The notes under the pieces: generated by a model
Seen by the model: the letters and a program-made list of their open reading frames with translations, nothing else
What the model was told of the DNA's origin: nothing
Database searches by the model: none
Assembly (NCBI GenBank): GCA_919902735.1
Contig: CAKKRM010000324.1
Coordinates: 1 to 39,764, forward strand
Reading direction: 5' to 3'
DNA length: 39,764 nucleotides
Source: Anaerolineales bacterium
Lineage (GTDB): Bacteria; Chloroflexota; Anaerolineae; Anaerolineales; Villigracilaceae
In this document: piece after piece, positions 2,913 through 35,172 of the stretch
Layout of the letters: each line of letters opens with the position of its first letter
Position numbering within the stretch: position 1 is the stretch's first letter
Translations under genes and position numbers: made by a program

Positions 2913-3263
2913 ATGGCTGACAATGCAAAACGATGGACTGTTCAAGACCGTGACGGCAATTCGATTTACCTGACGGAAGAACGATGGCAACATGTTACGG
3001 ATTCCGACAATCACCCTGAAATGGAAGATTACGAAGAATATTTAAAAACAACTTTGCAAAAAGGACGACGACAACAGGAACCTCTCAACCCGCGTAAATA
3101 TCGCTACATACATATGTTTGATGATTTGGTAGGTGATTTTAATCATCTCGTGGCTATTGTCTTGTTCGGATTGGATGTCACTGAGCAGGGTGATACCGAG
3201 TCAAATAATTTTGTAGCGACAGCCTTTCTAAAATATATTCGCCAGAAAGGCGATAAAAAATAA
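2913..3263 (+). CDS. Small nuclease-like protein, first gene of a toxin-antitoxin-like pair
   Basis: A soluble protein of 116 residues, preceded by GGAAGG at 2898 and by a TATAAT box at 2881-2886. The pattern YLTEERWQHV...HPEM...YLKTTLQKGRR...P resembles phage and toxin-type BECR-fold RNases and the DUF4258-like group, in which a conserved His lies in an LT-x-ER-W-x-H core; that assignment is inference from motif shape. The stop overlaps the start of the DUF2283 gene by one base (TAATG), implying translational coupling. Small nuclease-fold genes directly coupled to DUF2283 genes recur in bacteria and resemble toxin-antitoxin operons. The pair ends in a strong terminator and stands apart from AOR 1. 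An alternative is a stand-alone conserved hypothetical without toxicity. Confidence 0.5.
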   Translation: MADNAKRWTVQDRDGNSIYLTEERWQHVTDSDNHPEMEDYEEYLKTTLQKGRRQQEPLNPRKYRYIHMFDDLVGDFNHLVAIVLFGLDVTEQGDTESNNFVATAFLKYIRQKGDKK

Positions 3264-3637
3264 TGACAAATTCAACTTATTCCTACGATAAAGAAGCGGA
3301 TGTGTTATATATCTCGTTTTCGCCAGGCGAAAAGCCGACTGCCGCAGTGGAGTTGAACGAAAACATCCTTTTACGGTTCAACCGCGCTGAGAAACGCGCA
3401 ATTGGCTTGACACTAATGGATTTTTCCGTGCTGGTGCAACTCACAACATTAGGCCCGCGCAGTTTTCCTTTGAGTGGCTTGAAAGACCTTGAACCTGAAT
3501 GGCAGGAGACGGTGATTGAAATTATCACTTCTCTGCCCGTCAATCAGATTTTGAAGGTTTCCAGTTATATGCCTTCGTCTGCCGAGATCGTGCCGATTAC
3601 TTCTGTGGAAAAACCGCCAATCATGGTGGCGGTATAA
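3263..3637 (+). CDS. DUF2283 family protein, putative partner/antitoxin
   Basis: The first 60 residues show the DUF2283 signature: YSYDKEADVLYISFSPGEK, then a short strand, then NILLRFN, then AIGLTLMDFS. DUF2283 proteins are small beta-rich proteins often encoded next to small nuclease or toxin-like genes. The remaining 60 or so residues (LSGLKDLEPEWQETVIEII and a Pro-rich end) are an extension of unknown role. Translation starts on the ATG that overlaps the stop of the upstream gene. A role as antitoxin rests only on context. Confidence 0.6.
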   Translation: MTNSTYSYDKEADVLYISFSPGEKPTAAVELNENILLRFNRAEKRAIGLTLMDFSVLVQLTTLGPRSFPLSGLKDLEPEWQETVIEIITSLPVNQILKVSSYMPSSAEIVPITSVEKPPIMVAV

Positions 3638-3643
3638 AGTGAC

Positions 3644-3674
3644 AAAAAAACGCCTTTTGAGTAGGGCGTTTTTT
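3644..3674 (+). terminator. Rho-independent terminator after the DUF2283 gene
   Basis: AAAAAACGCC (3645-3654) and GGCGTTTTTT (3665-3674) form a 10-bp stem with a 10-base loop and a T-run. The A-run on the left means it could also work for the convergent arfB transcript, although arfB already ends at 3738. Confidence 0.9.
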
Positions 3675-3737
3675 ATACTCTTTCAAGCCATTGAAGTGAA
3701 GCTGATTGAGTTGCAGAGCGTCGCATAAACACCCAAC

Positions 3738-4142
3738 TCATTCTTCAAAGCTTTTCTTATTCAGCCTTGTCTTCTTAACCTCACCCCGTTTCTTTTTCCC
3801 TTGCAGCCTTTTTTCTTTGGATGCTTTTGTGGGCTTCGTCTTGTGGCGAAGTTTTGGCTTCTCGCCTGCTTTACGGATCAGTTCATAAAATCGTTGGATG
3901 GCGTCTTCGCGGTTTTGTTCCTGCGTACGGTATTTCTTCGCTTCGAGGATGAGAACACCGTCAGCGGTGAGGCGTTTACCAGCAAGCAGAATCAAGCGTC
4001 CCTTTAGGTCTGAGGCGAGGGAGGGGGAGTTGACTACGTCAAAGCGCAGTTGGACGGCTGTCGCAACCTTGTTGACGTTCTGTCCGCCGGGGCCGGAAGC
4101 GCGGATATATTCGAGGGTGATTTCAGAATCGAGATTTTTCAT
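3738..4142 (-). CDS. arfB: Alternative ribosome-rescue factor ArfB (YaeJ/ICT1 type)
   Basis: Peptidyl-tRNA hydrolase that releases peptides from ribosomes stalled on non-stop mRNA. The GGQ motif lies at residues 19-21 in RASGPGGQNVNKVATAVQLRF, exactly the short RF-1-like catalytic domain without any codon-recognition domain. The C-terminal 45 residues are very basic (KAGEKPKLRHKTKPTKASKEK and onward), matching the ArfB tail that inserts into the empty mRNA channel. The length of 134 residues is typical. It ends 40 bases before the MFS gene start region on the same strand and is probably independent of it. Confidence 0.93.
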   Translation of the reverse strand: MKNLDSEITLEYIRASGPGGQNVNKVATAVQLRFDVVNSPSLASDLKGRLILLAGKRLTADGVLILEAKKYRTQEQNREDAIQRFYELIRKAGEKPKLRHKTKPTKASKEKRLQGKKKRGEVKKTRLNKKSFEE

Positions 4143-4181
4143 TTTTCCCGATTATACGTGGGGCACAGCAACGCTGTGCCC

Positions 4182-5504
4182 CTACTTGACTACCCTCGGC
4201 GCGAAGAACCATAAAATTGCGAGGATTAACCCTCCCACAAAAAATGGGACTGGCCCGCCAAAATATTGAAAGAGCACTCCGTAAAACAACGGGGCCACTG
4301 CATTGGCTGCGCTATACGCCGCAGTGGATACGCCCAGCGCGCCGCCAACTTCGCTTTTGTCGGCGGTTTTGGTAATGAGGCTGTTGATGGCGGGATGCAG
4401 TACGCCGCCACCCAATGCGGCTGGAATGCTGGCGACCATCAGCCAAAGGATGCCAAACCAGCTTTTTGCCGCTTCATCGGGCAGTTGAATGTTGATGCTT
4501 TGAATGGAGACGCGGAAGCTGCCTTGCCCTGCCATACTTTCGAGAACCTTTGCTTTTTCATACCAGGGGACGGGAATGGCGGGCGTGAGCGCGGTTCCGA
4601 TCAACCCGATGGCAAGCGCGCCAAGCCCCATGAGAACCAGCCAGCGGTCGCCTTTTATTTTTGACCAGCGCCCAACCAGCCCGCCTTGCACAACGATGAT
4701 CAAAACACCCGCCAGCGCAAAGAGACCCGACGTGTCGCGCGCGTCCATGCCGAGGCGGGTGAGGGTGAACAATGAAAAGAGTTGTTCGTAGCCGCCGAAG
4801 GCCACCTGATAGAAGAACATAATGATAAGAAGAAAGCCAATGGCAGGGCGGTTAAGGGCGTCTCGCAGGGCAGCGAAGGAAAATGGACGTCGTTTGCGCG
4901 ATGCTTCGGGATTTTCAACTTCTGTGTAGGTTTCCTTGAACCAAAACACCGTCAGTAAAATTGAGATGAGCGAGAATAGCGCGGCAGTGAATGCCACGGC
5001 GCGATAATTTTGTCCTGTGGAGGCGAGGACGATGAATGCGATGATGGGGCCAAGCACAAAGCCGACGCCAAAAGCTGCGCCGATGAGGCCCAGGCCCTGA
5101 GTGCGCGTCTGTTCGGTGGTGCTGTCTGCGACGGCCGCCTGCGCTGTGGCAATGTTTGCGCCAGAGAGACCGTCGATGATGCGGGAGACAAAAAGCAGGA
5201 AGAGTGAATCAGCAAACCCGAGCAGGATGAAACCCGCCAGAGTGCCGATCTGACTTGCGACCAAAATTGGTTTCCGTCCGAAGCGGTCTGACAGCCTTCC
5301 AAGGATGGGCGCGCCAATGAATTGCATGAAAGGATATGCGGCCTGCAAAATTCCGATCACCAATGGCGAAGAGCCAAAGCGCGCCGCATACAAAGGCAGC
5401 AGCGGAATGATGATCGAAAGCCCCATCAAGTCCACGAGGACGATGACGAGGACAGGCAGAATTTTTTTGAAATCAGGCTTTTCGGTTGTGGCTTCTGTCG
5501 GCAT
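4182..5504 (-). CDS. MFS efflux transporter, TetA/DHA1-like
   Basis: A 440-residue inner-membrane protein with about 12 hydrophobic segments. The cytoplasmic loop 2-3 carries MFS motif A as GRLSDRFGRKPIL, and the first helix (VLVIVLVDLMGLSIIIPLLPLY) is like that of drug:H+ antiporters of the TetA/DHA1 class. A soluble insert of about 45 residues (from PWYEKAKVLESMAGQG to DEAAKSWFG) lies between the eighth and ninth hydrophobic segments, longer than usual for this family. It lies downstream of korB on the same strand, separated by a palindromic repeat. Substrate unknown. Confidence 0.88.
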   Translation of the reverse strand: MPTEATTEKPDFKKILPVLVIVLVDLMGLSIIIPLLPLYAARFGSSPLVIGILQAAYPFMQFIGAPILGRLSDRFGRKPILVASQIGTLAGFILLGFADSLFLLFVSRIIDGLSGANIATAQAAVADSTTEQTRTQGLGLIGAAFGVGFVLGPIIAFIVLASTGQNYRAVAFTAALFSLISILLTVFWFKETYTEVENPEASRKRRPFSFAALRDALNRPAIGFLLIIMFFYQVAFGGYEQLFSLFTLTRLGMDARDTSGLFALAGVLIIVVQGGLVGRWSKIKGDRWLVLMGLGALAIGLIGTALTPAIPVPWYEKAKVLESMAGQGSFRVSIQSINIQLPDEAAKSWFGILWLMVASIPAALGGGVLHPAINSLITKTADKSEVGGALGVSTAAYSAANAVAPLFYGVLFQYFGGPVPFFVGGLILAILWFFAPRVVK

Positions 5505-5520
5505 AATTTCCTAAAACAAA

Positions 5521-5569
5521 CCCTCCCCCAAATCCGTTCTTTGGATTTGGGGGAGGGCAGGGAGGGGGG
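5521..5569. repeat. G-rich palindromic repeat, copy H1
   Basis: CCCTCCCCCAAATCC (5521-5535) pairs with GGATTTGGGGGAGGG, followed by the tail CAGGGAGGGGGG. It sits immediately after the korB stop codon and before the MFS gene. A second copy of the same family lies inside the R-M gene (32225-32276). Confidence 0.85.
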
Positions 5570-5570
5570 C

Positions 5571-6626
5571 TTAGAACATCAACGAGTTGATCTTGTCGAT
5601 CATTGCGCGCTCAGGCCGCAAATCCACTTCGGTGAGGCGGTTGAGGGGCGTATCCACCAAATTGTAGATGGATGTCAAATTCGGCTTGGTAGTATTCACA
5701 TACAGCAAACCCGTCACGAGCCAGTTATTGCGCTGGGCTTCTTCCATCACACGCAGAGCCTCGAAGCGGTTGGTGGGATCGTAGCCTCTTTCGAGATTCT
5801 TCAAAATGACCGTCGAGCCGTCGTGCATGGCAACTTCGCGGACTTCGCCATCTTCCATTTCGCGCTCGAGGATGATCTCGTTGCGCGGCGCGATGTAGGA
5901 AATTTCATGCAGGGGTTCTTCGTGATCCTTGCCCCAGGCATAGGAATGGAAGGCGTTTTCCTGGTTATTGAAAGTGACACACGGGCTGATAATATCCAGC
6001 ACGGCGATGCCATCATGCGCAAGCGCCACTTTGAGCAATTCCTTCACCTGCTTGGGGTTGCCCGCAAAGGAACGCGCCACGAGGGTCGCATTGGAAACGA
6101 GCGCTTCCATACAAATGTCAACGGGCATGTAGGGATTCTCGCCCTGCTTCTTCAATTGCAAGCCCCTTTCAGCGGTGGCAGAGAACTGGCCTTTGGTCAA
6201 ACCATACACGCCGTTATTCTCGACGATGTAGACCATGTTCACATTGCGGCGCATGATGTGCTTGAACTGACCCATGCCAATGCTGGCCGAGTCGCCATCG
6301 CCTGAAACGCCGATGCCTTTCATGCGCGCATCAGCAAACAACGCGCCCGTCGCAATGGACGGCATCCGTCCATGCAAGCTGTTGAAGCCGAAGGTGCGGT
6401 TCAGGAAATACGTGGGTGACTTGGATGAACAGCCAATGCCGCTGAACTTCATCACATCTTCGGGCACGATGTTCATTTCGTACAACGCGGTCACGATCTG
6501 GTTCGAGATCGAGTTATGTCCGCAGCCCTGGCATAACGTAGTAGGCGCGCCGCGATAATCATTTTTGGATAAGCCAGCGAGATTGACGTTTGCCGTCGCG
6601 CCAGCCATGGGGAGGGTTTCAGTCAT
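5571..6626 (-). CDS. korB: 2-oxoacid:ferredoxin oxidoreductase, beta (TPP-binding) subunit
   Basis: Beta subunit of a CoA-dependent 2-oxoacid:acceptor oxidoreductase, which binds thiamine diphosphate and a 4Fe-4S cluster and decarboxylates 2-oxoacids such as 2-oxoglutarate or pyruvate. The TPP motif begins with GDGDSASIGMGQ and ends at VENNGVYGLTKG. The Cys pair LCQGCGHN near residue 33 and the Cys of FSGIGCSSK are cluster ligands in this family, and a conserved third site is C in SPCVTFNN. The start ATG lies inside the end of korA (8-base overlap) with AAGGAGA as ribosome site, so the two are translationally coupled. The substrate (2-oxoglutarate, pyruvate or branched chain) is not resolved; the symbol is the conventional one for this two-subunit type. 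Confidence 0.9.
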   Translation of the reverse strand: MTETLPMAGATANVNLAGLSKNDYRGAPTTLCQGCGHNSISNQIVTALYEMNIVPEDVMKFSGIGCSSKSPTYFLNRTFGFNSLHGRMPSIATGALFADARMKGIGVSGDGDSASIGMGQFKHIMRRNVNMVYIVENNGVYGLTKGQFSATAERGLQLKKQGENPYMPVDICMEALVSNATLVARSFAGNPKQVKELLKVALAHDGIAVLDIISPCVTFNNQENAFHSYAWGKDHEEPLHEISYIAPRNEIILEREMEDGEVREVAMHDGSTVILKNLERGYDPTNRFEALRVMEEAQRNNWLVTGLLYVNTTKPNLTSIYNLVDTPLNRLTEVDLRPERAMIDKINSLMF

Positions 6627-9602: not shown

Positions 9603-9749
9603 CTCACCTTACGCACCGCCCATGATTCCCTCCCGAAGGACATCGGGACGATGTGAGCGGAGCGAAGGGTCTCTAAGATAGTCGTAGAGACCCTTCGCTA
9701 TCGCTCAGGGCGACATGACCCTAAAATACGCAAAACTGCGTAAGGTGAG
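9603..9749. mobile_element. Miniature inverted-repeat element, family D copy 1
   Basis: Terminal inverted repeats CTCACCTTACGCA (9603-9615) and TGCGTAAGGTGAG (9737-9749) are perfect over 13 bases. Direct 7-base duplications GCTGTAA flank the element at 9596-9602 and 9750-9756. The 147-bp body encodes nothing but holds another palindrome (about 9655-9717: GAGCGAAGGGTCTCT pairing with AGAGACCCTTCGCT, ending GGGCGACATG), which belongs to the same family as the repeat at 35093-35164. Confidence 0.85.
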
Positions 9750-14952: not shown

Positions 14953-15115
14953 CATGGCTTTTCCAAGGTCGCTTGACATCTTTTTAATTTTGTAGCAAGG
15001 CTTAACGCGAAAAACGCAAATCAGGCAAATTTACGCGAAAATAAATGAAAAATTCGCGCCTTTCGCTTTTTCGCGGAATTCGCGTTAAGATTTTCCTGAC
15101 CTTGGAATAGCCATG
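14953..15115. mobile_element. 163-bp miniature element, family A copy 3 (inverted)
   Basis: Ends CATGGCTTTTCCAAGGTC and GACCTTGGAATAGCCATG, flanked by perfect 10-base duplications TGTTTTTTTT (14943-14952 and 15116-15125). The length is identical to copies 1 and 2, but the sequence has diverged and the orientation is reversed. The shared landmarks TTAAGATTTTCCTGAC and GTCGCTTGAC sit at the same distances from the ends. There is no coding capacity. It accounts for the 14860-15207 gap. Confidence 0.85.
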
Positions 15116-28904: not shown

Positions 28905-29067
28905 CATGGCTGTAGCAAAGTCAGGAAAATCTTAGCGCGAAATACGCGAAATTGGCGAATGGACGCGAAAAAGGAAAAATTCGCGCTCTTTCGCTTTTTT
29001 CGCGGCGTTCGCGTTAAAACGACGCCATGAATTCAGAACCACGTCAAGCGACTTTGCAACAACCATA
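28905..29067. mobile_element. 163-bp miniature element, family A copy 1
   Basis: Ends CATGGCTGTAGCAAAGTC and GACTTTGCAACAACCATA are imperfect terminal inverted repeats, flanked by perfect 10-base duplications GGCGGGTTTT (28895-28904 and 29068-29077). The inside has palindromic CGCGAA-rich arms and no gene. It differs from copy 2 (33699-33861) at three inner positions only. It is inserted at the end of the hemerythrin gene, whose stop codon begins within the right duplication. It accounts for most of the 28784-29076 gap. Confidence 0.9.
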
Positions 29068-29076
29068 GGCGGGTTT

Positions 29077-30755: not shown

Positions 30756-33602
30756 TTATTCTCCTTTCACAATCTTTATTTCGTCTTCCGTCAACCCATA
30801 CAACTGATAAACCAACCCATCAATCGCCTTATCCACTGACTCGACCTCGCGCGTGAGACGATCTGCCTCCTGCGGGTTGTGCGTGGACTTAAGACTCTTG
30901 TGCAGTGCCAACATCCTCTCGACCAGCGAGACCATCTTGTCGTGCTGTACCTTTAGTAAATCTTCTTGGGGAAACGGTAAAGATAATATATCTTTTATCG
31001 TGACTTGCGGAAAGTCATCTTTTACTGCTTGGGTTACTTGCTTTATATACAAAAACGACAATAGTTTGCTGTTCAAAACTGCAAGTAGCACTTTCCCATT
31101 TATCCCTTGCGGAATTATCGAATATAGATTTTTATTGGTAATGAAAGTCTGGTCTGTTAAACAAGCCATTAACCGTTGCTGGCGATTAACAAGACGCCGT
31201 AACAGGACTCGCTCACTTTCAAACCAAATGGTTTCCTTTGGTTTTTCTTTTAGGTTCTCCCCAAACTCAACCCATCTTTCAATTTCCAGATTAATTCGAT
31301 AGCGGTAAACATCGCCTTCAAAGTAGCGATAATCTTTGTTTGAATCTTTTTTGTCGTGCAATAAATCTAAATCAAATAAAACACCACGACGCATAATAAC
31401 CACGTCTTTCAGTATTCTTGCGCTTGTCTTTTTTATACGATCAAGAATTTCCAAAGTCTCTGGATCAAGTACAAATTTGTTTCCATCAGTCTCACCCCAA
31501 TCTTTTTGCAAAACAAGTTTGTAATCTTTGATATCCATTGTCACTATTTTTTCCCGCTTGGGATAAGAGTATGTTTTTACCTTATGATCGTCACTTGCTT
31601 TTAAGTTTTCAATTACAAAGATTAACGTGTCGATATATGCGTCCTTGAATATATCAAAAGGTAACAATATCAAGTTTTCGATTTGGTAATTAAGTAAACG
31701 AGAGCGAAGTGCAGAGTATTGTGGACCTCCAGTCCAGCCTGACGGAACAATAAATGATATGCGCCCTTTTTCTTTTGAAACAGAAAGGGCTTTCTCAATA
31801 AAGCATGTGTAAACATCTTTTGTTGAACTAAACGTTTTATAAATCTTGCTGAAATACAAATCATCTTCTCGAGTGAACGACGCTCCATACGGCGGATTTC
31901 CCACCACAGCGTCAAACCCACCCTGAGCGAACACTTCGGGGAAAGCTGCTTTCCAATCAAAGGCATTCACGCGCGCGCGTTCTTCTTCATCCACCATCAA
32001 CTGTCCATCCCAATAATCGGGACCGATCAACGAATTGCCGCATTGGATGTTCCTGCCCAAGTCAGGCAAAATGCGTTCATCGAGATAGCTCAACTGTCCA
32101 GGGTCTTCGATCACTTTCAAGAGCAGGGAAAGTTTGGTCACTTCCACAGCCTGCGGGTCAATATCCACGCCGTAAATGTTGTTTAGCAAAATCTCTTTCT
32201 TCTTTTCAACGCTTAACTTCCAACCCCCTCCCTGCCCTCCCCCAAATTCGGAAGTGCGCCGAATTTGGGGGAGGGTGGTGACGACGGCGGGGTTCTTGCC
32301 CTTCGACCATTTTTCAGGGTCGTTGTTGATATACCAATCCAAATGCCAATCCAGCAAATATTGATACGCGCCCAAAAGGAAAGTTCCCGAACCGCAGGCG
32401 GGGTCAAGCAGTTTTAATTTCGCGGCTTCCTTCGGAGTCAGCCCCAGCAATAATTTTCCAAGTGTATTGACAATGATGGTGTAAACGATAAAGGTCGGCG
32501 TGTAATATACCCCGCCCGCCTTGCGGACTTCGGGCTTCTCCTCCACTTTTGCGTTTCCGCTCGCCGTCAGTCGAATCACCTTGCCCAAAAACTGCTCGTA
32601 GATCTGTCCCAAAATATCGGCGGGGATCAGCGCGAACACATACGGCGCGGGATAATACAAATCCTTGATGATGTCTTTCAGAACTTTATCGTCAATCTCC
32701 AGCCCCGTCGTAAAAGTATCCGCGCGCCCGCGTCCAGTTTCATTTTTGAAATGGAACAAACCAGAGTTATAGCGTCTGTCTGCTCTTTCAAAAAGTTTTT
32801 TCAGTTCATCATAAACATTTTCGCGCTTCGAGATTTCCTGCAATTGATATTCGGATTCATATCCGCGATCTTCGCAGATACGCAGGAAGATCATGCGGTC
32901 AATCGTCATTTGGACTGAATAATTCAAATCCGCTTCGCTCTTAACCTTGAGCTTGTTTCGCAAAGCGACATTTTTTGCCAACGCCTCACGCCAGCCTTCG
33001 ATCTCCGCCAGAAACGCCGAGTCTACTTCGGCAGTGCCTTTCTTCTTCGCTGCTGTATTCGCAAACTTATCAAATCCGCCCGTCATCACCGCGTCATGCG
33101 AAAAGATGGCCGCGATCTCATCCCACTTCTCGATGTAATCGGTGTAATGCAACAACATCACGCGCCCCGTTTTGACCGAGTCACTTACTTTGGGCTTGCT
33201 GCGACATTCATAAATAGCAAATTCTTCAAAGTCTGTCAAAATCCCCAACGGCAGTTTTGCCGACCAGACATAACGCTTTAATTGAAATGCAACTTCGGGA
33301 TTGGTTTCTATTCTTACCGAAGGCTTCTTTGCTTCCACAAAAAACTTGCGTTCCTTCCCAACCTTGAACGCATAATCCGGCGCTTTCTTCGCTCCCTCGA
33401 TCTCCAGCGAATCTTCGTGAATGACGTGCTTGTTCTCCTCGGAATATCCCAGCCTGTTGAACACGTCCCAGCCCAACGCCTCGAAGAACGGGTCCAAAAA
33501 TTCCCGCCGCAACTGCGTCTCGTTATACTTCCCCGTGCGATAGGCATCGCGGTGCAGTTCAAATCTTTCTACCAGTTGTTTGATGATGTCAGGCGCGGTC
33601 AT
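30756..33602 (-). CDS. Single-chain type IIG-like restriction-modification enzyme
   Basis: A 948-residue combined endonuclease and N6-adenine methyltransferase. The N-terminal domain has a PD-(D/E)xK site: D76, E90 and K92 in APDYAFKV...FFVEAKKP. A helical linker follows; then methyltransferase motif I DPACGSGTFLLGAYQYL near residue 400 and motif IV GNPPYGASF near residue 566; residues from about 700 on are a TaqI-C/Eco57I-like target-recognition region (ILKDVVIMRRGVLF, EKPKETIWFESERVLLRR, FITNKNLYSIIP). The end IDGLVYQLYGLTEDEI is typical. About 17 residues between motifs I and IV come from a palindromic repeat. The recognition sequence is unknown. Confidence 0.92.
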   Translation of the reverse strand: MTAPDIIKQLVERFELHRDAYRTGKYNETQLRREFLDPFFEALGWDVFNRLGYSEENKHVIHEDSLEIEGAKKAPDYAFKVGKERKFFVEAKKPSVRIETNPEVAFQLKRYVWSAKLPLGILTDFEEFAIYECRSKPKVSDSVKTGRVMLLHYTDYIEKWDEIAAIFSHDAVMTGGFDKFANTAAKKKGTAEVDSAFLAEIEGWREALAKNVALRNKLKVKSEADLNYSVQMTIDRMIFLRICEDRGYESEYQLQEISKRENVYDELKKLFERADRRYNSGLFHFKNETGRGRADTFTTGLEIDDKVLKDIIKDLYYPAPYVFALIPADILGQIYEQFLGKVIRLTASGNAKVEEKPEVRKAGGVYYTPTFIVYTIIVNTLGKLLLGLTPKEAAKLKLLDPACGSGTFLLGAYQYLLDWHLDWYINNDPEKWSKGKNPAVVTTLPQIRRTSEFGGGQGGGWKLSVEKKKEILLNNIYGVDIDPQAVEVTKLSLLLKVIEDPGQLSYLDERILPDLGRNIQCGNSLIGPDYWDGQLMVDEEERARVNAFDWKAAFPEVFAQGGFDAVVGNPPYGASFTREDDLYFSKIYKTFSSTKDVYTCFIEKALSVSKEKGRISFIVPSGWTGGPQYSALRSRLLNYQIENLILLPFDIFKDAYIDTLIFVIENLKASDDHKVKTYSYPKREKIVTMDIKDYKLVLQKDWGETDGNKFVLDPETLEILDRIKKTSARILKDVVIMRRGVLFDLDLLHDKKDSNKDYRYFEGDVYRYRINLEIERWVEFGENLKEKPKETIWFESERVLLRRLVNRQQRLMACLTDQTFITNKNLYSIIPQGINGKVLLAVLNSKLLSFLYIKQVTQAVKDDFPQVTIKDILSLPFPQEDLLKVQHDKMVSLVERMLALHKSLKSTHNPQEADRLTREVESVDKAIDGLVYQLYGLTEDEIKIVKGE
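32225..32276. repeat. G-rich palindromic repeat inside the R-M gene, copy H2
   Basis: CCCTCCCCCAAATTCGG pairs with CCGAATTTGGGGGAGGG, with the same CAGGGAGGGGG tail as copy H1 at 5521-5569. It is read in frame as LPQIRRTSEFGGGQGGG within the methyltransferase domain, adding residues without a stop. Confidence 0.88.
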
Positions 33603-33698: not shown

Positions 33699-33861
33699 CA
33701 TGGCTATTGCAAAGTCAGGAAAATCTTAGCGCGAAATACGCGAAATTGGCGAATGGACGCGAAAAAGGAAAAATTCGCGCTCTTTCGCTTTTTTCGCGGC
33801 GTTCGCGTTAAAACAACGCCATGAATTCAGAACCACGTCAAGCGACTTTGCAACAACCATA
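33699..33861. mobile_element. 163-bp miniature element, family A copy 2
   Basis: Ends CATGGCTATTGCAAAGTC and GACTTTGCAACAACCATA are flanked by 10-base duplications GTGCAGCGTG (33689-33698) and GTGCTGCGTG (33862-33871), one mismatch. Same orientation as copy 1 and nearly identical to it. It lies upstream of the R-M gene. The 33603-33982 gap also holds a TATAAT box on the minus strand (33652-33657) and the hairpins listed next. Confidence 0.9.
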
Positions 33862-33901
33862 GTGCTGCGTGTGCACGCAAAACATGTCAGGTAATCTGCT
33901 C

Positions 33902-35092: not shown

Positions 35093-35164
35093 ATGTCATT
35101 CTGAGCGGAGCGAAGAATCCCTAAGATTATCGTAGAGACCCTTCGCTAACGCTCAGGGTGACAT
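35093..35164. repeat. Palindromic repeat, family G, between the fusion gene and leuB
   Basis: Begins ATGTCATTCTGAGCGGAGCG and ends CGCTCAGGGTGACAT. It matches the palindrome carried inside the element at 9603-9749 (GTAGAGACCCTTCGCTA segment in both). No gene in the gap. Confidence 0.85.
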
Positions 35165-35172
35165 GGATAAAG

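What the first reader, a model, noticed from the sequence alone, without database searches (positions are those of the whole stretch)
32225..32276. Palindromic repeat inserted in frame inside an R-M methyltransferase
A G-rich repeat of the same family as the intergenic copy at 5521-5569 (arms CCCTCCCCCAAAT / ATTTGGGGGAGGG and the same tail) is translated as LPQIRRTSEFGGGQGGG between methyltransferase motifs I and IV without breaking the frame. It shows a repeat creating protein sequence, similar in principle to Rickettsia palindromic elements.
Basis: partly seen in the sequence, partly recalled or inferred. Interest (0 to 1): 0.7.

Follow-up and report, generated by a model that had tools for sequence, protein, structure and literature searches.

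The report
Palindromic repeats repeatedly overwrite protein loops
A short DNA palindrome sits in frame inside a DNA-modifying enzyme of a bacterium that is probably a Chloroflexota, and its relatives show that several distinct palindrome families keep taking over the same loops of ordinary enzymes, writing new pieces of protein.

Summary
A 52-bp hairpin-plus-tail element (32224-32275, minus strand) lies in frame in an intact 948-aa type IIG-like methyltransferase gene, at the tip of a predicted beta-hairpin where many homologues have a short loop. It belongs to a dispersed family (F1) matched in 49 of 57 genomes of the genus and 35 of 151 sampled genomes of the order. In-frame copies recur: 26 of 132 sampled copies lie in frame in identified genes, among them MurJ, HemB, PyrC, TlyA and methyltransferases. 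The window's own genome holds a second one, in a geranylgeranyl-reductase-family gene. The same loops are occupied in different species by different F1 copies, by a distinct C/G-tract family (F2) and, in PyrC, by an unrelated palindrome (F3). The PyrC loop needs at least 24 changes of state on a 46-row tree, the LLM-oxidoreductase loop at least 11 on 50 rows. Native residues are replaced, not merely interrupted. This works like Rickettsia palindromic elements; it lacks a constant GTAG/CGTC tag and any seen link to RAYT genes. How the elements move is not shown. New variant of a known kind.

The parts
32224..32275 (-). in-frame copy of the F1 palindromic element: hairpin with a 17-bp stem plus G-rich tail CAGGGAGGGGG; encodes TLPQIRRTSEFGGGQGGG with its edge codons
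   Evidence: predicted hairpin of 17 bp, -33 kcal/mol as RNA
30756..33602 (-). host gene: 948-aa type IIG-like restriction-modification methyltransferase (HSDR_N, N6_Mtase/Eco57I, TaqI_C)
5521..5568 (+). intergenic F1 copy directly after the stop codon of gene 5571-6626; read on the minus strand it is a hairpin followed by TTTGTTTT, terminator-like; 8 other species have a copy at this place
5571..6626 (-). TPP-enzyme / 2-oxoacid:ferredoxin oxidoreductase beta-like gene (called korB in my scripts, a recalled name), whose 3' end carries the intergenic copy
4182..5504 (-). MFS transporter gene downstream of the intergenic copy, same direction; also next to the copy in 5 of the 8 other species

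Best explanation
The segment is a copy of a dispersed, REP-like palindromic element (F1: C-rich arm CCCTCCCC(C)AAAT, variable upper stem and loop, complementary G-rich arm, asymmetric G-rich tail) that landed in a gene. Such C/G-tract elements hold few stop codons, so copies that land in a tolerant loop with a net length change divisible by three survive as new protein sequence; copies elsewhere in genes are purged (inferred). At such loops the native residues are then lost, copies decay, sometimes collapsing to about one arm, and other families move in, so the loop is overwritten again and again. Shown here: family, in-frame position, empty homologues, recurrence, replacement and decay. Inferred: tolerance, purging, and spread by a mobile mechanism, most likely trans-mobilisation of a hairpin element or copying by template switching.
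For: Family: pattern CCCTCCCCN{8,37}GGGGAGGG in 36 of 57 genus genomes, reversed-pattern control in 2 of 57; model R1 in 49 of 57 at E up to 0.01 and in 35 of 151 order genomes at E up to 1e-4, genus members included, 20 of 67 genera. In frame inside domains: MurJ, ALAD, FtsJ, Bac_luciferase, NTP_transf_3, MmeI_Mtase and Helicase_C matches run across the insert, as does a geranylgeranyl-reductase model. 26 of 132 sampled copies are in frame in identified genes. Same loops, different copies or families. At least 24 changes on the PyrC tree (46 rows) and 11 on the LLM tree (50 rows). Sister pair G031/G074: the largest difference inside either gene is the loop. Model: residues 444-459 have pLDDT under 50 between strands 440-442 and 461-463.
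Against: No mobilising enzyme is tied to F1: among 30 loci around Y1 transposase genes (30 of the 55 genomes that have them) one holds a weak F1 match; F2 and F3 were not tested there. No target-site duplication was noticed in the loops compared by eye, and native residues are missing at occupied loops, which simple insertion does not explain. All three reading phases are used (T of the 5' arm in codon position 1, 2, 3: 13, 7, 5 of 26, one unscored), so the element is not specialised for coding. Most genomes are drafts. Expression and activity are untested. The AlphaFold2 model is weak overall (mean pLDDT 68).
Confidence: 0.82

Rival explanations
1. The loop is an old, conserved part of the enzyme that happens to be G-rich and palindromic, with no mobile element involved.
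For: G021 and G072 (81-85% identical over their matched parts) have a similar loop, SLPQLRSSIGAGQGGG.
Against: Their DNA is a decayed copy of the same element; six genus members and several named homologues have a short loop instead; the same element occurs at many unrelated places.
Confidence: 0.04
2. The insertions are ancient and vertical: one event per gene, followed by divergence and loss.
For: G000, G021 and G072 share the methyltransferase copy; the copy next to gene 5571-6626 is at the same place in 9 species, the window's included.
Against: Distinct families sit in the same loop; states are scattered on both trees with at least 24 and 11 changes; sisters G009/G078 carry F1 versus F2 in PyrC and G031/G074 carry an F3 remnant versus F2.
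Confidence: 0.08
3. The hairpins are kept for an RNA function in the coding region (pausing, mRNA stability, or a G-quadruplex from GGGGGAGGGCAGGGAGGGGG).
For: The predicted hairpin is very stable and the 3' part matches a four-run G motif; inner-stem columns pair in 33 to 35 of 35 aligned copies, though these copies were picked by a pattern that demands matching arms; the intergenic copy looks like a terminator.
Against: Orthologues with native loops are common (17 of 49 PyrC, 38 of 50 LLM); decayed copies are kept as coding sequence; families differ.
Confidence: 0.12
4. Loop alleles spread between species by homologous recombination, so few true insertions underlie the many changes.
For: F3 and F2 loops in PyrC recur in similar form across species.
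Against: In the G031/G074 pair the flanks stay close to identical nearly up to the loop, so an imported tract would have to be little longer than the loop; inserts in the LLM gene differ in sequence between species.
Confidence: 0.2

Closest known systems
Rickettsia palindromic elements (RPE; Ogata et al. 2000 and 2002, seen only as described in passages of PMC10969869 and PMC3733652)
   Same: Palindromic repeats inserted in frame in many unrelated genes, adding translated segments; several families in one lineage.
   Different: The review describes RPEs of about 150 bp in Rickettsia; the F1 matches here span about 31-82 bp, are C/G-tract palindromes and lie in another phylum. Here distinct families reoccupy the same loop across species and native residues are replaced. 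No sequence comparison with RPEs was run.
Intragenic REPs with GTAG or CGTC tags (PMC3733652; section 15 in full and passages, some from the abstract, were read)
   Same: Small hairpins with one asymmetric end, mostly between genes, some inside genes; that paper notes different REPs at about the same site of recB in two Xanthomonas species.
   Different: No constant tag: 14 of 85 copies have GTAG, CGTC or a complement within 9 nt outside the stem; five of these (L028, L086, L104, L106, L116) share a longer repeated flank with CCGTC. No link to Y1/RAYT genes was found.
Coding palindromes in Nematomorpha mitochondrial genes (PMC6649704; only the start of the abstract in a search listing was seen)
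   Same: Inverted repeats embedded in protein-coding genes.
   Different: Animal mitochondria, inverted repeats up to 284 bp; no dispersed bacterial family.
Type IIG methyltransferases and relatives with solved structures: CamA, BrxX/PglX, BpuSI, MmeI
   Same: Fold and sequence of the host protein.
   Different: The top solved relative by sequence has a shorter stretch at the loop position (alignment).

Membership tests
Rickettsia palindromic elements | palindromic repeat present in many genomic copies | tested here: met
Rickettsia palindromic elements | in-frame copies in several unrelated genes with domains intact | tested here: met
Rickettsia palindromic elements | sequence homology to the described RPE families | not tested
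   no RPE sequence was fetched or compared
Rickettsia palindromic elements | host protein stays functional | not testable with these tools
   motifs DPACGSG and NPPY are intact; activity unknown
GTAG/CGTC REP | constant GTAG or CGTC tetranucleotide at one end | tested here: not met
   14 of 85 copies have any of these words or their complements within 9 nt of the stem; two far control windows hold 13 occurrences
GTAG/CGTC REP | association with RAYT (Y1_Tnp) genes | tested here: not met
   one weak match in 30 Y1_Tnp loci; 55 of 57 genomes have Y1_Tnp matches
MITE | target-site duplication | tested here: inconclusive
   occupied and empty loops compared by eye; native residues are replaced, no duplication noticed; no intergenic empty site was examined
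Type IIG restriction-modification enzyme | nuclease-like N terminus, N6 methyltransferase and TaqI-like specificity domain in one protein | tested here: met
   HSDR_N, N6_Mtase/Eco57I, TaqI_C; enzyme activity not tested

The most novel reading that the evidence does not exclude
Bacteria of this genus carry a standing process of loop overwriting: several distinct palindrome families are copied into, decay in and are replaced at a fixed set of loops of housekeeping enzymes, with removal of the native residues, so that palindromic DNA is a continuing source of new protein segments. The replacement itself may be an active step (hairpin-templated or transposase-driven exchange at the loop) rather than insertion followed by slow trimming.
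Probability: 0.3. Interest if true: 0.87.

Novelty: new variant of a known kind. Interest (0 to 1): 0.73.

Why it matters
Coding palindromes are best known from Rickettsia, obligate intracellular bacteria. Here they occur in what is probably a group of uncultured Chloroflexota with genomes mostly of 3-5 Mb, in core enzymes such as dihydroorotase, porphobilinogen synthase and MurJ, and the same loops serve as repeated landing sites for several families. With native, occupied and decayed orthologues side by side in dozens of species, the question whether selfish palindromes create tolerated or useful protein sequence becomes directly testable: natural pairs of enzymes exist that differ little outside the loop. 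It also warns that palindrome-derived peptides such as SPLPEGEGLGVR or LPKSNGFGEGRGG in predicted proteins can be real inserts.

Tried and rejected
RAYT link: 30 loci around Y1_Tnp matches were scanned with R1; one weak match, so a REPtron arrangement is not supported.

A coding-specialised element (one preferred frame) was considered and rejected: all three phases occur.

The 132-copy sample was made by hand: one entry per overlapping pair of matches, the same place fetched twice counted once, and matches weaker than about E 1.7e-4 dropped. L113 and L116 (decayed methyltransferase copies, both E 1.7e-4) were kept although other matches of like strength, for example L028:1471, L080 and L120, were dropped; without these two the count is 24 of 130. 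One search gave 35 element-ORF rows; 9 were left out: four antisense frames (L151, L175, L187, L088) and L145, L159, L163, L176 and L094, judged by eye and not scanned. L083 (PyrC of G036) is an in-frame case but lay below the limit of the 132 list and counts only in the PyrC table; L011 (own genome) was found later and is not in the 132. The window copy at 5521 lies in a long open frame but between genes, so it counts as intergenic.

Three PyrC loci (L247, L301, L307) were lost from the tree by the extraction pattern; they are in the 49-locus tally. Trees are 'quick' trees with many open forks (15 of 43 and 25 of 47 inner branches), so the change counts are minimum counts on those trees. F2 and F3 labels were set by eye from DNA and peptide. 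F2 pools two hairpin types (CCCTCTCCC.. and TTGACCTCACCCCCGGCCCC..) that may be separate, and F1 and F2 could be distant relatives; only F3 is plainly unrelated.

Papers: searches listed no paper on coding palindromes of Chloroflexota in the open PMC library; listings were capped and subscription papers could not be searched.

Full report
What is there. The window is contig C324 of a 4.26-Mb draft genome in 356 contigs. The tool does not name the genus. Of the 9 named records that encode a relative of the methyltransferase, 5 carry Anaerolinea or Anaerolineales titles, including the closest match (93% over residues 1-85). Since such genes move between lineages this is weak evidence; I take the host as probably Chloroflexota, Anaerolineales. 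The element at 32224-32275 reads, on the gene strand, as a hairpin with a 17-bp stem and an 11-nt tail. The copy at 5521-5568 has the same arms and tail. The arm motif is above chance in the window (6 sites, 1.23 expected, 0 of 100 shuffles).

The host gene. The 948-aa protein has HSDR_N, N6_Mtase/Eco57I and TaqI_C matches and resembles solved adenine methyltransferases, including CamA and BrxX by sequence and fold and BpuSI and MmeI by fold. Its motif residues are among the invariant columns. A 23-sequence AlphaFold2 model has low overall confidence (mean pLDDT 68), but residues 444-459 are under 50 between two short strands, 440-442 and 461-463, while the neighbouring blocks of ten residues (401-440 and 461-480) average 80-94. 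So the insert is most likely a disordered extension at the tip of a hairpin.

Empty and occupied homologues. 20 of 57 genus genomes have a homologue at E 1e-60 or better. At this loop G031, G033, G022, G074, G068 and G061 have a short loop (QxKxG type); G000 has F1; G021 and G072 a decayed F1; G017 a complete F1 in frame; G078 a short F1 (ACCTCCCCCAAGGTGGGGGAGG); G005, G002 and G071 a longer segment of other sequence; G029 an odd GC-rich loop in one copy; G003, G067, G077 and a second G029 copy a different loop of another subfamily; G076 and G006 were not read at this site. Among 8 named records, two Anaerolinea-titled ones, one of two Anaerolineales and the Phycisphaerae one have a short loop of similar kind; another Anaerolineales and a Deltaproteobacteria record differ somewhat; Syntrophorhabdus and Methanomicrobiales have long loops. 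None of the 9 named loci has an F1 match within the gene. The same gene carries further in-frame F1 copies at an N-terminal site in G017, G022 and G061 and at a C-terminal site in G078. Against the short loop the window enzyme gained 14 residues net and lost about four native ones, so this is replacement rather than clean insertion.

The family. An exact pattern found copies in 36 of 57 genus genomes, the reversed control in 2 of 57. A covariance model built from 35 copies found matches in 49 of 57 and in 35 of 151 genomes drawn from the order, genus members included, in 20 of 67 genera. Typical copies have a 5' C-tract (often lost), the inner hairpin CCCTCCCC(C)AAAT...ATTT(G)GGGGAGGG with a variable top, sometimes a mini-hairpin, and a G-rich tail. 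GTAG or CGTC words or complements lie within 9 nt of the stem in 14 of 85 copies.

In-frame copies are common. I fetched copies from the pattern and model lists and used 132 of them as a sample that leans towards high-scoring copies (what was dropped is told under Tried and rejected). 26 of these 132 lie in frame in identified genes (list; 24 of 130 without two weak, decayed copies). In MurJ, HemB (ALAD), TlyA (FtsJ), an F420-type LLM oxidoreductase, a YqeC/MocA fusion, an MmeI-like methyltransferase and a DEAD/DEAH helicase a Pfam match runs across the insert; a geranylgeranyl-reductase model does so too. For PyrC, NCBIfam matches lie on both sides, one running across. The rest were identified by alignment with orthologues, shared sequence or domains elsewhere in the protein. 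In the window's own genome a second in-frame F1 copy lies in the geranylgeranyl-reductase-family gene, in the same loop where G026 has another copy; the two proteins are 78% identical over 403 columns. All three reading phases are used.

The same loops are hit again and again. For PyrC, 49 loci with the loop in view fall into native 17, F1 3, F2 13, F3 4, F3 remnants 5 and other 7. F3 is the palindrome GACCTGACAGGT..ACCTGTCAGGTC; its exact pattern occurs in 45 of 57 genomes with no control match, and the F2 core CCCCTCTCC..GGAGAGGGG in 48 of 57, control in 2. Four of the 5 F3 remnants keep about one arm (GACCTGACAGGTC or GACCTGTCAGGTC in three, GACCTGACAGGTT in one), as expected from deletion across a hairpin. 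On a tree of 46 PyrC proteins without the loop at least 24 changes of state are needed. For the LLM enzyme 50 loci are native 38, F2 8, F1 4, with at least 11 changes. Sisters differ: G009 has F1 and G078 F2 in PyrC; G031 and G074 align at 92% over the PyrC locus and 86% over the LLM locus, gaps and intergenic stretches counted, and inside both genes the one large difference is the loop. In the LLM pair 18 native bases stand against 48 bases with the palindrome.

The intergenic copy. At 5521 the element lies directly after the stop codon of gene 5571-6626 and before an MFS gene read in the same direction. Eight other species have a copy next to the end of the orthologous gene (G017, G018, G019, G026, G036, G061, G073, G077), 5 of the 8 with the MFS gene beyond it. 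In the window and the 6 of these printed on the gene strand it is a hairpin followed by a T-rich stretch, and the G073 copy typed into one search shows the same, so it may serve as an intrinsic terminator (inferred; no terminator scan was run). Some copies are thus long kept, while loop copies turn over.

How it works. Shown: a dispersed palindrome family, in-frame copies within conserved domains, empty homologues, repeated occupation of the same loops by several families, replacement of native residues, and decay. Inferred: copies arrive widely, those that disrupt proteins are lost, and a few loops tolerate them; erosion and new arrivals then overwrite the loop. The copying mechanism is open. 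Y1/HUH transposases are present in 55 of 57 genomes but were not found next to F1. Template switching at hairpins and exchange by recombination remain possible.

Comparison with what is known. The principle is that of Rickettsia palindromic elements and of intragenic REPs (PMC3733652: section 15 in full and passages; PMC10969869: passages). PMC3733652 already lists many intragenic REPs, notes different REPs at about the same site of recB in two Xanthomonas species, and names Chloroflexi among phyla with GTAG repeats. What seems new is the host group for coding copies, the C/G-tract family without a constant tag, and the extent of recurrent multi-family turnover at single loops. My literature searches cover only open PMC papers.

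Noticed in passing
window 28905-29068 and 33699-33862: 164-bp direct repeats, 98% identical, flank the methyltransferase gene and the RhuM-family gene, with a partial inverted copy at 15069-15115; the pair may mark a mobile or recombining module.
   Followed up: partly
window 9654-9717 and 35102-35165: Two 64-nt copies (89%) of another palindromic repeat; in the first the arms are AGCGAAGGGTCTCTA and TAGAGACCCTTCGCT.
   Followed up: no
L028, L067, L086, L104, L106, L116: A subset of F1 copies shares a longer 5' flank (TTTTGATTTCAAACGCAACCGTCC and variants), so the hairpin may be part of a larger repeat there.
   Followed up: partly
L114 (G072:C11) 2001-2166: Three F1 copies in tandem with spacing near 58 bp.
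   Followed up: no
L116 (G021) and L113 (G072): The methyltransferase locus has F1 copies within longer repeats around it; G072 has an extra unit upstream compared with G021.
   Followed up: partly
L192 (G009) LLM loop: The F1 copy has matching changes on both arms (CCTCCGCC / GGCGGAGG), a compensatory change inside coding sequence.
   Followed up: no
L249, L293, L300, L306 PyrC loop: A further loop type, purine-rich (VSQVSSEERGKRKEGR and variants), without a clear palindrome, recurs in scattered species including the window's genome.
   Followed up: no
L342:5940-5987: In a named Anaerolineales record an F1 copy lies just after the end of the methyltransferase match (3001-5925).
   Followed up: no
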